A stretch of 33,499 bases of DNA. Origin: Rhodobacteraceae bacterium (ex Bugula neritina AB1). Its GTDB lineage: Bacteria; Pseudomonadota; Alphaproteobacteria; Rhodobacterales; Rhodobacteraceae. How positions within the stretch are numbered: the first letter of the stretch is position 1; every line of letters begins with the position of its first letter. The DNA is taken from positions 1 through 33,499 of the forward strand of contig MDLF01000106.1 of NCBI GenBank assembly GCA_001730095.1, given 5' to 3'. The notes beneath the pieces are model-generated. The model saw nothing but the letters and a program-made list of their open reading frames with translations. It ran no database searches and was not told the origin of the DNA. Positions 2-16,368 of the stretch are shown here, piece after piece. The position numbers and the translations under genes are program-made.

Positions 2-454
2 CCGCTGGACGGCTATTTTGGCTACGCATTGGGTCGCCTGGGCTACCGGACGCTGGATTTCGAACGCTTTACCCATCAGGGCGACTATCAGGGCTGCGCG
101 GTGATGAACTACGGCGAAGAAGAGGTGCCCTTTACCCGCATCACCGAGCACAAGCATTTCGCACCCTGGGAAAGCCATGAGGGTTCGGTGCTCTACCGCG
201 AGTTTTCCCGCCTGGCAGAGCCCGGCGACATCCCCTACTACCCGATCCGCCAGGTGAAGGAGAAGGAACTGCTGGCCGCCTATGTGAAGCGGGCACAGGA
301 CACCCGCGGCGTCACCTTTGTGGGCCGCCTGGCCACCTACCGCTATCTGGATATGGATGTGACCATCCGCGAGGCGCTGGATGCGGCGCGCGGCTTTGCC
401 GCCTGCCTGGAAAAAGGCGAGGCGGCGCCGGCCTTTTTTGCAGCGCCGCTTTAA
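2..454 (+). CDS. glf: UDP-galactopyranose mutase, C-terminal part (5' end outside window)
   Basis: UDP-galactopyranose mutase is a cytoplasmic FAD enzyme that interconverts UDP-galactopyranose and UDP-galactofuranose, the donor for galactofuranose in surface glycans. About 150 C-terminal residues are visible. The reading frame is open from base 2, before any start codon, so the gene begins upstream. Family segments seen are the stretch [22 protein letters not shown] (typical of the UGM active-site region), and near the end [14 protein letters not shown], which matches the family's C-terminal FAD-contacting region. The stop codon overlaps the stop of the convergent GT2 gene, the two sharing TTAA at 451-454. 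Identity is confident from these motifs. Start, FAD-binding N-terminus and total length cannot be seen. Confidence 0.9.
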
Positions 455-1446
455 GCGGGCAGGCGGAAGATTTCTGCGGCCCGCTGCCAGTCGGCGGGCC
501 GGTCCTGCTGCAGCTGGCGGCACATTTCCCGGCTGAGATATCGCTGCAGAAAGGCAGAGCCAAGGGTCTGGAGCTCGGCCTGCAGCTCCTTGGCCAGCGT
601 GCCCTGCACCCAGTTCAAAAGCCCCAGCGCAAAGCCGAAGAAGGCCGGGGCATAGAGACGCCCGGCGGGATCCGGGCCGGCGGCGATTTCCAGCGCGATC
701 TGCTCCAGCGGCTCGAACACCCGCAGCCGTTCGCGGTCCAGCCGGTTGGTCAGGCGGCGGCCGTTATCGGCGACGAAATGGGTGACGCCGGTGCAGGCGC
801 TGCTGAGAATACGCTCTGCCCGCAGGAAGCTTTGCCAGTGCAGGGCAATGTCGTTGTGCACCAGGGTTTCAGAGCAGCGGATGTTCTGTTCCAGCAGGAA
901 TTCGGTGCGGTAGATCTTGTTCCACGGGTAATTGGCGGTCTGCGCCAGCAGCGGCGCGGCCGGGTCCGGCACCGGGTTCAGGCTGCCCTGGGCGCGGCCC
1001 GCCTGAGCCCAGAAACTCTGGTCAAAGGGCATCTGCCCCCAATGCCGCTCCTGCGCCATCCGGCTGTCGTGGTGCTGAAAGATGCAGAAGTCGAACGGAT
1101 CCGCCTGCGCCAGCGCCTGGCACAGGCTGCGCAATTCGCGGGTGGGCAGGTCGTCGGCATCCAGAAACAAGAGATGCCGGGTCTTTACATGCAAAAGTGC
1201 GCGGTTGCGCGCTGCCCCTGCGCCCCGGACCCGGTCCTGGCGCAGCAGGGTCAGCCGGGCCGGGTCCAGCCCGCTGTCCCGGGCCAGCGTCTCTGCATCG
1301 GGCGCGGGTAGGGAGCCGTCATCGGCGACGATCACAGCCTGGGCCAGCCCAAGTGCCGCCAGGTGCCGCAGCAGCCGGGCCAGATTGCCGTTGTCGTCAT
1401 GGCTGGGGATGGCGACGGTCAGGTCGAGGGGCGGAGCAGAAGGCAT
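451..1446 (-). CDS. Family 2 glycosyltransferase
   Basis: A 331-residue GT-A fold glycosyltransferase, predicted to move a sugar from a nucleotide donor to a growing glycan at the cytoplasmic side of the membrane. Visible GT2 marks: strand 1 with [13 protein letters not shown] (residues 9-21), the nucleotide-binding ADDGS (41-45), RGAGAARN (74-81) and the metal-binding FLDADD (94-99). The later segment [11 protein letters not shown] followed by VHNDIALHW (196-204) is the usual acceptor-side region in which an acidic residue serves as base. There is no membrane segment. It is the last gene of a minus-strand run that also has a sulfotransferase and an ATP-grasp gene, and lies 14 bp after the small unknown gene. 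Donor and linkage cannot be inferred from sequence alone. Confidence 0.88.
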
Positions 1447-1460
1447 GGCGGATCCCGGGC

Positions 1461-14046: not shown

Positions 14047-14784
14047 ATGATCCTCGTCGTTTATGGCCAGCAGAAGTCTGCCAGCACCTATCTGGCACAT
14101 CTTGCCAGGGCAGTATGTGAGTCCTCGGGTGTGCCTCAAGAGGCTTTGCGCAAGCGGGTTCTGACCGGGCCGCTGGAACGCCACCGGGTGTTCTGGCGGG
14201 ACAATCATCTTTTCAATGTGACAAAAGTGGCTGACCGGCTGAAGCCGGGCGAAAACCTGTCGATCAAGACGCATGCTGAATTTCAGCCCCGTTATACTGA
14301 GGCGCTTGGCCGTCCCGATGTCCGGGTCCTGATTTCCTACCGGCATCCAGGCGATGCAGCGCTCTCTGCTTTTGAAGCCGGTGAGCGTGCCCGCAGGGAG
14401 GCTGACAAGAACAAGCCGTTTTTTTCTGCAATCCATTCTCATCGTGGCGGCATTGACGTGATGGCGCGACTGCTGGAGCGGGCCACCATCCCTTGGCTGA
14501 AATCCGCTATGGGGGTGCCATTTTCCTATGAGCAGATCACCCGCGAAACACAGTCTGTGCTGGATGTGCTTTGCGATCTGGTGAACTGCCGGCGGGAGGC
14601 GCTTGAGGCCAATGACGCCCTGCAGGCCCTGTTGTCCGGGGAACGGCGGGTCTATAATTTCAACAAGGGCGTTTCGGGCCGTTACAAGGAAATGTTCAGC
14701 CTGGCAGATCAGGCCTATTTGGAAGAACGGTGCGGCAAGTTCATGCGGTTTTGCGAGGGAGAGCTTCCGGTTGCATCGCTTTGA
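14047..14784 (+). CDS. Sulfotransferase-like protein
   Basis: A 245-residue P-loop protein with a sulfotransferase layout. The phosphosulfate loop is YGQQKSASTYLAHL (6-19), and a 3'-phosphate strand LISYRHPGDAALSAF (95-109) follows at the usual distance. The C-terminus has YNFNKGVSGRYKEMFS, resembling the conserved FRKGxxGdwk region near the end of sulfotransferases, which closes over PAPS. It lies in the GDP-fucose block between fcl (55 bp) and manC (147 bp), with an AAAGG ribosome site. Its base composition is visibly more AT-rich than the flanking genes, so it may have been inserted later. Sulfation of a fucose-containing glycan is a reasonable guess from context, not shown by sequence. 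Confidence 0.8.
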   Translation: MILVVYGQQKSASTYLAHLARAVCESSGVPQEALRKRVLTGPLERHRVFWRDNHLFNVTKVADRLKPGENLSIKTHAEFQPRYTEALGRPDVRVLISYRHPGDAALSAFEAGERARREADKNKPFFSAIHSHRGGIDVMARLLERATIPWLKSAMGVPFSYEQITRETQSVLDVLCDLVNCRREALEANDALQALLSGERRVYNFNKGVSGRYKEMFSLADQAYLEERCGKFMRFCEGELPVASL

Positions 14785-14931
14785 GAGCCCCTGGCCGGAC
14801 CGTGCCATGCCGCTGGCCTTTATGGAGCGGCAGATTGTGAAAACAACCGCACTGAAACTTTCAGGCGGGTTATACCTACGGGGGGCCGGAGATTTCACGG
14901 TCCGGATTCTGCGGGGAGGCAAGGCAGCATC

Positions 14932-16368
14932 ATGATATATCCGGTTCTTCTGTGCGGCGGCTCTGGCACCCGCCTGTGGCCTTTGTCGCGCAAAAGCTAC
15001 CCCAAGCAGTTCGTGCCGCTGACGGGTGAGGAAACGCTGTTTCAGGCCTCGGCGCGGCGGCTGTCAGGCGACGGTTTTGCCAGCCCGCTGGTGCTGACCA
15101 ATTCCGATTTCCGCTTTATCGTGACCGAACAGCTGGCAGGCGCGGGCATCGATCCCGGTGCCATCTTGATCGAGCCTGAAGGGCGCAACACTGCGCCTGC
15201 GGTGCTGGCGGCGGCGCTGTGGCTGGAAAAAAGCGATCCCGAAGGGTTGATGCTGGTGGCGCCGTCGGATCACGTGGTGCCGGATGCGGATGCGTTCCGC
15301 GCGGCGGCGGCAGCCGGACTGCAGGCGGCGCAGGCAGGCCAGCTGGTCACCTTCGGTATCAAACCTGAGCGGGCCGAGACCGGCTATGGCTATCTCGAGC
15401 TGTCCGGGGACCCGGGCGATTTCACGCCGCGCCCCATCGGGCTGAAACGCTTTGTGGAAAAACCGGATGCGGCCAAGGCGGCGCAGATGCTGGCCTCGGG
15501 GCAGTATCTGTGGAACGCAGGCATTTTCCTGTTCTCGGTGAAAACCATTCTGGCGGCCTTCCGCCAGCATGCGCCCGAGCTGCTGGCGCCGGTGCAGCAG
15601 GCGGTGGACCAGGGCCAGCCTGATTTGGGCTTTCTGCGGCTCGATCCTGCGGCCTGGGCAGGGGCCGGGGATATCTCGATCGACTATGCGGTGATGGAGC
15701 GGGCGGACAACCTGTCGGTGGTGCCTTATGCGGGCGGCTGGTCCGACCTGGGCGGTTGGGATGCGGTCTGGCGTGAGGCGGGGCCGGATGCGGCTGGCGT
15801 GGTGACGTCCGGACCGGCAACGGCGATTGACTGCGCAGACAGCCTGTTGCGGTCCGAAGGCGACGGGCTGGAGCTGGTCGGCATCGGGCTGAAAGACGTG
15901 ATCGCGGTGGCAATGCCTGATGCGGTGCTGGTGGCGGCGGCGGACCGGGCGCAGGATGTGAAACAGGCTGTGGCGGCGCTGAAAGGCAAACAGGCCCGTC
16001 AGGCCACGGAATTCCCCAAGGACCACCGCCCCTGGGGCTGGTTCGAGAGCCTGGCGGTGGGGGACCGGTTTCAGGTCAAGCGCATTCATGTGCATCCCGG
16101 CGCGGCGCTGAGCCTGCAAAGCCATCACCACCGGGCAGAGCACTGGATCGTTGTGGAAGGCACGGCCAAGGTCACAGTGGATGGTACCGAGCAGCTGGTG
16201 AGCGAAAACCAGTCGGTCTATATCCCGCTGGGCGCGGTGCACCGGATGGAGAACCCGGGCAAGGTGCCGATGGTGCTGATCGAGGTGCAGACCGGCAGCT
16301 ACCTGGGCGAGGATGACATCATCCGCTACGACGACATCTATGCCCGCGGCCAGGGCGCCAAAGGGTAA
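14932..16368 (+). CDS. manC: Mannose-1-phosphate guanylyltransferase / mannose-6-phosphate isomerase
   Basis: A 478-residue bifunctional enzyme making GDP-mannose from mannose-1-phosphate and GTP and, by its C-terminal domain, interconverting fructose-6- and mannose-6-phosphate. The N-terminal nucleotidyltransferase domain shows VLLCGGSGTRLWPLSRKSYP (6-25), EPEGRNTAPA with the conserved Arg/Asn, and the FVEKPD strand. The C-terminal type II PMI cupin (about 360-478) has HPGAALSLQSHHHRAEHWIV with its metal-binding histidines, and a final VHRMENPG strand. Length is typical (470-480). A GGGGAGG ribosome site precedes the ATG. It supplies the substrate of Gmd. It ends convergent with the DUF2793 gene 48 bp away. 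Confidence 0.96.
   Translation: MIYPVLLCGGSGTRLWPLSRKSYPKQFVPLTGEETLFQASARRLSGDGFASPLVLTNSDFRFIVTEQLAGAGIDPGAILIEPEGRNTAPAVLAAALWLEKSDPEGLMLVAPSDHVVPDADAFRAAAAAGLQAAQAGQLVTFGIKPERAETGYGYLELSGDPGDFTPRPIGLKRFVEKPDAAKAAQMLASGQYLWNAGIFLFSVKTILAAFRQHAPELLAPVQQAVDQGQPDLGFLRLDPAAWAGAGDISIDYAVMERADNLSVVPYAGGWSDLGGWDAVWREAGPDAAGVVTSGPATAIDCADSLLRSEGDGLELVGIGLKDVIAVAMPDAVLVAAADRAQDVKQAVAALKGKQARQATEFPKDHRPWGWFESLAVGDRFQVKRIHVHPGAALSLQSHHHRAEHWIVVEGTAKVTVDGTEQLVSENQSVYIPLGAVHRMENPGKVPMVLIEVQTGSYLGEDDIIRYDDIYARGQGAKG

What the first reader, a model, noticed from the sequence alone, without database searches (positions are those of the whole stretch)
2..16368. Candidate locus for a fucosylated, sulfated surface polysaccharide
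The sequence shows GDP-fucose synthesis (gmd, fcl, manC), two GT10 fucosyltransferase-like modules, three separate sulfotransferase-like genes, glf for galactofuranose and an ATP-grasp ligase. GT10 enzymes use GDP-fucose and sulfotransferases use PAPS, so the inferred product is a fucan-like sulfated glycan, an unusual polymer for a bacterium. No polymerase or flippase gene is in the window, so part of the pathway must lie elsewhere.
Basis: partly seen in the sequence, partly recalled or inferred. Interest (0 to 1): 0.72.

Follow-up and report, generated by a model that had tools for sequence, protein, structure and literature searches.

The report
Plasmid cassette for fucosylated, sulfated capsule
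This marine bacterium carries, on what looks like a known type of biofilm plasmid, a swappable gene set that probably builds a surface sugar coat containing fucose and sulfate, using an unusual three-in-one sugar-adding enzyme; the sugar chemistry itself remains to be tested.

Summary
In detail: gmd, fcl, manC, two GT10 modules, three sulfotransferase-like genes, the end of glf and a TupA-like ATP-grasp gene are present. The contig breaks inside glf and inside a type I secretion gene; KpsM/E/T-like exporters lie on sister contigs that end in glf, so a missing Wzy polymerase need not be a gap. Fucose is well supported: loci with the fused GT47-GT10 enzyme carry gmd or fcl in 14 of 27 and rml in 0 of 27; 21 of 23 genomes with this GT10 have fcl (116 of 394 overall). 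Sulfation is supported but its target is open: sulfotransferase ST2 tracks fcl (22 of 24 genomes) and shares 7 plasmids with GT10, but its neighbourhoods hold fucose and rhamnose genes equally often (8 of 20 each). New details: a GT2-GT47-GT10 fusion (21 of 56 fetched loci), with the GT2 site lost in Leisingera yet under purifying selection, and two CBM4-like small proteins. "Fucan-like" is not supported; a heteropolymer is likelier. No chemistry was tested.

The parts
2..454 (+). glf, UDP-galactopyranose mutase, last 150 codons; contig starts inside the gene
   Evidence: PF03275 144.5 bits; identical 465 bp at start of sister contig C81
451..1446 (-). GT2 glycosyltransferase (GT2a)
   Evidence: PF00535 53 bits; next to smallA in window and relatives
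1461..2027 (-). smallA: CBM4-like beta-sandwich protein
2024..2761 (-). ST1 sulfotransferase
   Evidence: PF13469 74 bits over cut-off 27
2784..3590 (-). TupA-like ATP-grasp protein
   Evidence: PF14305 57.5 bits over cut-off 25
3645..6968 (-). three-module glycosyltransferase: degenerate GT2 (about residues 1-250), GT47/exostosin (326-665), GT10 (766-1106)
7146..7685 (+). smallB: homologue of smallA
   Evidence: BLASTP E 1e-6, 26% over 87 residues; also in L069 and, cut by the contig end, L068
7716..8795 (-). stand-alone GT10 fucosyltransferase-like protein (start inferred)
   Evidence: PF00852 20.2 bits, just under cut-off 23.9; 40% to the fusion's GT10 module
8996..9988 (+). coiled-coil protein (cc), function unknown; true start uncertain
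   Evidence: weak CLZ match below cut-off; syntenic in L069
9992..10807 (+). protein called FkbM-like here (name recalled; no Pfam or NCBIfam family)
   Evidence: no family; 26-34% homologue in 9 of 20 ST2 stretches
10800..11768 (+). ST2 sulfotransferase-like protein
11879..12997 (+). gmd, GDP-mannose 4,6-dehydratase
   Evidence: TIGR01472 587 bits
13002..13991 (+). fcl, GDP-L-fucose synthase
   Evidence: NF047922 518 bits
14047..14784 (+). ST3 sulfotransferase-like protein
   Evidence: PF00685 20.7 bits, cut-off 22; R-H-P-x-x-x-x-x-S stretch
14932..16368 (+). manC, mannose-1-phosphate guanylyltransferase/mannose-6-phosphate isomerase
   Evidence: TIGR01479 571 bits
16417..17778 (-). DUF2793 + Peptidase_G2 protein
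   Evidence: PF11962, PF10983; 61-76% in L001-L004
17811..20234 (+). RTX calcium-binding protein 1
   Evidence: PF00353 155 bits
20266..24247 (-). rmlA, rmlD, rmlB, rmlC: complete dTDP-L-rhamnose operon
   Evidence: 82-92% to L. thetidis pBMJM1_7
24399..25640 (+). GT4 glycosyltransferase
   Evidence: PF12000, PF00534; 87% in L004
26575..28986 (.). two LuxR-type regulators (26575-27240 -, 27859-28986 +; the second just below Pfam cut-off)
   Evidence: PF00196 66.6 and 21.2 bits, cut-off 23.5; 74% and 83% in L004
29792..32335 (+). RTX calcium-binding protein 2
   Evidence: PF00353 287 bits
32398..33498 (+). type I secretion permease/ATPase, N-terminal part, cut by contig end
   Evidence: PF00664; 86% to L004 T1SS residues 1-314

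Best explanation
The window is the variable sugar cassette of a roseobacter biofilm-type plasmid. It makes a capsule-like heteropolysaccharide in the cytoplasm. manC, gmd and fcl supply GDP-mannose and GDP-L-fucose; rml supplies dTDP-rhamnose; glf supplies UDP-galactofuranose. GT2a, GT4, the stand-alone GT10 and the three-module enzyme assemble the chain. In the three-module enzyme the GT47 and GT10 sites would act in turn, and its GT2 part no longer catalyses but may hold the protein or the acceptor. ST1-ST3 add sulfate from PAPS before export, perhaps (ST2) on the fucose-bearing unit. The CBM-like proteins may hold or recognise the growing chain. A KpsM/E/T-type ABC exporter, found upstream of glf on both possible neighbouring contigs, exports it. 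Shown here: gene content, domain make-up, active-site loss, purifying selection, co-occurrence, exporter and APS-kinase genes. Inferred: the polymer, the linkages, which sugar is sulfated, the order of steps, the role in attachment.
For: Family hits. Gene order glf...sulfotransferase...gmd-fcl-manC-DUF2793-RTX-rml on P. inhibens pPGA1_65 and pPGA2_71, the rml operon being inverted there relative to the window; rml-GT4-LuxR-RTX-T1SS synteny with L. thetidis pBMJM1_7. Leisingera sp. ANG59 has the whole cassette except ST3, with about 2.9 kb extra between the fusion and TupA; L. aquimarina has the fusion-to-glf part on a 140,244-base record, the length given for its RepA-I plasmid pAqui_E140 (PMC3910692 passages). 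fcl in 116 of 394 family genomes, in 21 of 23 with this GT10 (P 2.6e-10) and 22 of 24 with ST2 (P 7e-11). Near fused GT47-GT10 genes: gmd or fcl in 14 of 27 loci (15 by the looser cut), rml in 0 of 27; without GT10, gmd or fcl in 2 of 22. GT10 on 8 plasmids, ST2 on 8, 7 the same; fcl on all 8 GT10 plasmids. KpsM/E/T-like genes on C92 (directly before glf) and C102 (about 9 kb before glf), PF05159 capsule genes, APS kinase. Of 15 proteins tested, none has a clear membrane segment; two reach borderline hydropathy (manC 1.66, FkbM-like 1.62).
Against: No chemistry. ST2 and ST3 score below Pfam cut-offs. In 20 stretches of up to 20 kb around ST2, gmd/fcl and rml genes are equally common (8 of 20 each), so its neighbourhood does not single out fucose, and no genome-wide rml control was run. 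ST1 is not significantly linked to fcl (4 of 8, P 0.18). In L. aquimarina the complete rhamnose operon is described on another plasmid, pAqui_D148, so rhamnose need not belong to this polymer. The assembly does not fix which sister contig the window joins: glf is shared, and L. aquimarina synteny favours C102 over C92, which carries the RepA gene. Wzx/Wzy were not searched genome-wide. Two GT10 genomes of 23 and two ST2 genomes of 24 lack fcl at the cut-off used.
Confidence: 0.58

Rival explanations
1. The polymer is fucosylated, but the sulfotransferases act on another sugar (rhamnose, galactofuranose, mannose) of the same polymer.
For: The characterised Cobetia marina sulfated capsule carries sulfate on L-rhamnose and has a rhamnose operon, kpsETMD, kpsSC and PAPS genes (PMC11766843 passages). 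rml is on this contig. rml genes lie near ST2 in 8 of 20 stretches, as often as gmd/fcl. ST1 shows no significant fcl link.
Against: ST2 tracks fcl and GT10 at genome level: 22 of 24 with fcl, 13 of 24 also with GT10, and within fcl genomes ST2 and GT10 still go together (P 9e-7); 7 of 8 plasmids shared.
Confidence: 0.27
2. The glycan is an LPS O-antigen or lipid-linked glycan, not a capsule.
For: manC, rml and GT genes are shared with O-antigen loci (recalled); related plasmids carry an initiating sugar transferase.
Against: The exporter is KpsE-like (TIGR01010, E 2e-61, but 208 bits against a cut-off of 437.5) and the KpsT-like proteins are only about 220-250 residues, too short for the extra binding domain of O-antigen exporters (recalled); PF05159 capsule genes are in the genome.
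Confidence: 0.1
3. The cassette glycosylates proteins, for example the RTX proteins encoded beside it.
For: RTX and T1SS genes lie beside the cassette on the window and relatives; plant GT10 members act on protein glycans (PMC11468063 passages).
Against: Capsule-type exporter upstream of glf; TupA-like ATP-grasp, glf and several polysaccharide GTs. An oligosaccharyltransferase was not searched for.
Confidence: 0.05

Closest known systems
[quoted passage not shown] inhibens pPGA1_65 and pPGA2_71)
   Same: KpsM/E/T-like exporter (pPGA2_71), glf, a sulfotransferase, gmd-fcl-manC, DUF2793, RTX, rml in the same order. rmlA-D deletion mutants there are described as reduced in attachment (PMC11481893 passages).
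   Different: No match to this GT10 or to ST2 on any Phaeobacter plasmid at E 1e-5; the genes between glf and gmd differ; rml operon inverted.
L. aquimarina pAqui_E140 (RepA-I, 140 kb)
   Same: Carries smallB (part), the fusion, TupA, ST1, smallA, GT2a and glf at 72-94%; published as rich in glycosyltransferases with a GDP-mannose operon (PMC3910692 passages).
   Different: The paper does not use the word fucose (0 occurrences) and places its complete rhamnose operon on another plasmid.
Cobetia marina KMM 1449 sulfated capsule
   Same: dTDP-rhamnose and GDP-mannose supply, kps ABC exporter, kpsSC, PAPS and sulfotransferase genes (PMC11766843 passages).
   Different: Rhamnose-2-sulfate/mannose polymer, the word fucose does not occur; chromosomal; another class of bacteria (recalled).
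Synechan (xss), Synechocystis megaplasmid
   Same: Plasmid-borne polysaccharide cluster with sulfotransferases (PMC8205485 passages).
   Different: Wzx/Wzy route; cyanobacterium.
EXT1/EXT2 and other two-domain polymerising glycosyltransferases (recalled)
   Same: GT47 fused to a second GT in one chain; profile of the fusion matches Exostosin-1.
   Different: Partner here is GT10, plus an N-terminal GT2; bacterial.

Membership tests
Roseobacter biofilm plasmid with rhamnose operon | complete rml operon with polysaccharide and RTX/T1SS genes | tested here: met
   window 20266-33498, syntenic with L004
Roseobacter biofilm plasmid with rhamnose operon | RepA-I replicase on the same replicon | tested here: inconclusive
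   RepA 92% to that of pBMJM1_7 on contig C92, not in the window (class RepA-I inferred); contig joins ambiguous
Roseobacter biofilm plasmid with rhamnose operon | loss abolishes attachment | not testable with these tools
   needs a strain
ABC-transporter-dependent capsule | KpsM/KpsE/KpsT-type exporter linked to the locus | tested here: inconclusive
   present on C92 10032-13193 and on C102, both ending in glf, but hits are below curated cut-offs and the join is ambiguous
ABC-transporter-dependent capsule | KpsC/KpsS-type linker enzymes in the genome | tested here: met
   PF05159 over cut-off at C85:83093-87249; KpsC/KpsS naming recalled
ABC-transporter-dependent capsule | no Wzx/Wzy for this polymer | not tested
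   no genome-wide search made
GT10 fucosyltransferase | donor-site motif and homology to solved GT10 | tested here: met
   motif; solved fucosyltransferases by profile; Pfam scores just under cut-off
GT10 fucosyltransferase | fucosyl transfer activity | not testable with these tools
   needs assay
GT47 exostosin | PF03016 over cut-off | tested here: met
   48.7 bits over 33.4; Exostosin-1 by profile
Active GT2 (first module of the fusion) | acidic pair at the donor site | tested here: not met
   DD kept in 19 of 24 aligned proteins, lost in the window and 4 others
PAPS sulfotransferase | family model over cut-off | tested here: inconclusive
   ST1 over cut-off; ST2 and ST3 below
Sulfated bacterial capsule | PAPS supply (APS kinase) | tested here: met
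   PF01583 204 bits at C67
Sulfated bacterial capsule | sulfate ester in the polymer | not testable with these tools
   needs chemistry
Fucan/fucoidan | backbone mainly of fucose | not testable with these tools
   gene content with rml, glf, manC points away from it
CBM4 carbohydrate-binding module | CBM4-like fold | tested here: met
CBM4 carbohydrate-binding module | glycan binding; membership by sequence | tested here: inconclusive

The most novel reading that the evidence does not exclude
The GT2-GT47-GT10 protein is a soluble capsule copolymerase that builds a fucose-containing repeat, with its GT2 part turned into a non-catalytic acceptor holder in Leisingera; ST2 is a dedicated fucose (fucan-type) sulfotransferase family, often annotated 'hypothetical'; and free-standing cytoplasmic CBM proteins measure the chain or hand it over to an exporter whose ATPase has no binding domain of its own.
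Probability: 0.18. Interest if true: 0.75.

Novelty: new variant of a known kind. Interest (0 to 1): 0.5.

Why it matters
[quoted passage not shown] 2016, seen in reference lists only), yet I saw no sugar composition for their polymer in the passages I read. GDP-fucose genes and a sulfotransferase sit on the 65-kb plasmid of the model strain P. inhibens DSM 17395, so a fucose/sulfate prediction is directly testable by gene removal in a laboratory strain. ST2 is a candidate for a sulfotransferase family tied to fucose-containing glycans, and the GT2-GT47-GT10 fusion is an enzyme layout that I found no description of in two paper searches (listings only).

Tried and rejected
I looked for the ABC exporter rather than Wzx/Wzy and found it on sister contigs; absence of Wzx/Wzy in the genome was not tested. 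Folding the fusion protein as a single sequence failed (pLDDT 37); I spent one of two jobs there instead of giving the alignment, so the fusion's fold rests on sequence profiles. I first took the window to join contig C92 (RepA); one search showed that L. aquimarina synteny favours C102, so the join is left open. The Michael 2016 biofilm-plasmid paper could not be read. A paper search for all five of sulfated, fucose, Roseobacter, exopolysaccharide and sulfotransferase gave 0; this covers only the held open library.

Counting limits: only 2 candidates per genome were scored, at most 5, so absences are lower bounds. The GT10 set of 23 uses E below 1e-30 (29 genomes at 1e-3; six weak ones dropped). 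The 394 genomes are nearly one per genus (393), which reduces relatedness but does not remove it; the own genome is among them (without it: 20 of 22 and 21 of 23). The ST1 control has only 8 genomes and little power. Of 24 ST2 places 20 were read. RTX rows were left out of the printouts, and one search printed 30 of 56 loci (all 56). Two of the 21 complete fusions (L070, L097) come from one metagenome bin. Many loci are cut by contig ends, so 'no gmd/fcl' is partly truncation; 7 of the 56 loci have a GT10 that is not fused and are in neither group (5 of them with gmd or fcl). dN/dS comes from three sequences by Nei-Gojobori counts. One search used 25,000 of 33,499 bases.

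
Full report
WHAT IS THERE. The window is contig C106, complete, of a 4.67-Mb draft genome. From left to right: the end of glf (+), GT2a, smallA, ST1, TupA-like ATP-grasp and a 1,107-residue glycosyltransferase (all -), smallB (+), a stand-alone GT10 (-), a coiled-coil protein, an FkbM-like protein, ST2, gmd, fcl, ST3, manC (all +), DUF2793/Peptidase_G2 (-), RTX1 (+), rmlA/D/B/C (-), GT4 (+), two LuxR-type regulators, RTX2 and the start of a type I secretion ATPase. The rhamnose operon, the GT47 module and the nature of the two small proteins were missed.

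WHERE IT LIES. The right part (20266-33498) matches L. thetidis plasmid pBMJM1_7 gene by gene at 60-92% protein identity (one ORF, 25731-26402, has no match), and that plasmid continues into HlyD and RepA. The order glf ... gmd-fcl-manC-DUF2793-RTX ... rml recurs on P. inhibens pPGA2_71 and pPGA1_65, with the rml operon inverted. Of 72,556 plasmid records 140 hold an fcl at E below 1e-110, 56 of them Phaeobacter. The own genome has two such modules: glf N-terminal parts end contigs C92 and C102 and C-terminal parts start C106 and C81, 99-100% alike, which explains the contig breaks. C92 carries RepA, ParA/B, and KpsM/E/T-like genes directly before glf; C102 carries another KpsM/E/T set about 9 kb before its glf. 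L. aquimarina has C102-like genes beyond glf, so the window may join C102. Either way an exporter of this kind lies upstream of glf. PF05159 capsule genes (KpsC/KpsS type) and APS kinase are elsewhere in the genome.

IS THE FUCOSE-SULFATE LINK MORE THAN CHANCE? In 394 genomes of the family (393 genera) fcl was found in 116. This GT10 type was found in 23 at E below 1e-30, 21 with fcl (6.8 expected, P 2.6e-10). ST2 was found in 24, 22 with fcl (7.1 expected, P 7e-11); in 17 of these 22, own genome included, it lies within 20 kb of fcl. Among the 116 fcl genomes ST2 and GT10 still go together (13, P 9e-7). ST1, as a small control, was found in 8 and 4 had fcl (P 0.18). Among plasmids, this GT10 is on 8 and ST2 on 8, 7 of them the same; all 8 GT10 plasmids carry fcl. 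ST2 is labelled 'hypothetical protein' on 4 of its 8 plasmids and has no annotated feature on one. Controls with rhamnose genes cut both ways. Near fused GT47-GT10 genes gmd or fcl is in reach in 14 of 27 loci and rml in 0 of 27; without GT10 gmd or fcl is in 2 of 22 (P 0.002 for 14 of 27 against 2 of 22). Near ST2, however, gmd/fcl and rml are equally common, 8 of 20 each. So the fusion is tied to fucose; ST2 is tied to genomes and plasmids with fucose genes, but its neighbourhood does not say which sugar it modifies.

THE THREE-MODULE ENZYME. Pfam finds GT47 over cut-off in all five GT47 proteins scanned and GT2 over cut-off in two relatives, L071 and L081. A profile of 16 proteins finds fucosyltransferase 9, Exostosin-1 and a protein named only 'Glycosyltransferase' in the PDB, matching the third, second and first module. 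Complete fusions occur in 21 of 56 fetched loci, mostly Rhodobacteraceae but also Sphingomonadales, Novosphingobium and Marinicaulis records; in Salipiger abyssi the exostosin and GT10 parts are two adjacent genes. In 19 of 24 aligned proteins the GT2 part keeps its acidic pair; it is lost in the window, L. aquimarina and Leisingera ANG59, and in L076 and L080. Yet dN/dS in that part is 0.26-0.30 between the three Leisingera copies, against 0.19-0.27 for the GT47 and GT10 parts and 0.38-0.48 for the linkers. So the GT2 part is retained by selection although it should not catalyse (the reading of the motif is established knowledge of GT2 enzymes, recalled).

HOW IT MOST LIKELY WORKS. Nucleotide sugars are made by the window's own enzymes. 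A crude hydropathy scan of 15 proteins shows no clear membrane segment (two borderline values), so assembly and sulfation are placed in the cytoplasm, followed by ABC export. This would make a Wzy polymerase unnecessary; the multi-module GT is the best candidate for chain growth. Which sugars alternate, where sulfate sits, and the lipid anchor are not shown. Rhamnose may or may not be in the same polymer: in L. aquimarina the complete rhamnose operon is described on a different plasmid.

COMPARISON. As a kind, this is a known roseobacter biofilm plasmid locus (P. inhibens rmlA-D deletion mutants are described as reduced in attachment, PMC11481893, passages; L. aquimarina pAqui_E140 is described as rich in glycosyltransferases with a GDP-mannose operon, PMC3910692, passages). 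As chemistry it would work like the Cobetia marina sulfated capsule (PMC11766843, passages). Maeda et al. 2021 wrote that no sulfated polysaccharide had been reported in bacteria other than cyanobacteria (PMC8205485, passages), which the Cobetia work contradicts. New here, as far as I could see, are the ST2-GT10-fcl association, the GT2-GT47-GT10 layout with a non-catalytic GT2 part, and the CBM-like proteins; paper searches listed nothing that describes them, judged by the titles and abstract starts listed, apart from the passages named.

Noticed in passing
window 16417-17778; L001-L004, L035, L151: A DUF2793 + Peptidase_G2 protein lies beside the RTX1-type gene in all six plasmid regions named and beside manC in four of them; its role near capsule genes is unexplained.
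   Followed up: partly
L017 (contig C102) 1-6582: The contig begins with an exact 6,582-base palindrome (KpsE-KpsM-GT in both directions): assembly artefact or a true inverted duplication.
   Followed up: no
L036 10884-13753: Sulfitobacter dubius plasmid carries cysD and cysN beside rml, GT10, gmd and fcl, on the same plasmid as ST2: sulfate activation on the plasmid itself.
   Followed up: no
   Followed up: no
L131-L150, near ST2; window 9992-10807: A 26-34% homologue of the FkbM-like protein is found near ST2 in 9 of 20 stretches, suggesting a paired function.
   Followed up: partly
L030 (contig C81): The second glf-linked cassette of the same genome has other genes after glf (not scanned against families) but a similar manC-DUF2793-RTX end (70-80% DNA identity): cassette exchange between replicons of one cell.
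   Followed up: partly
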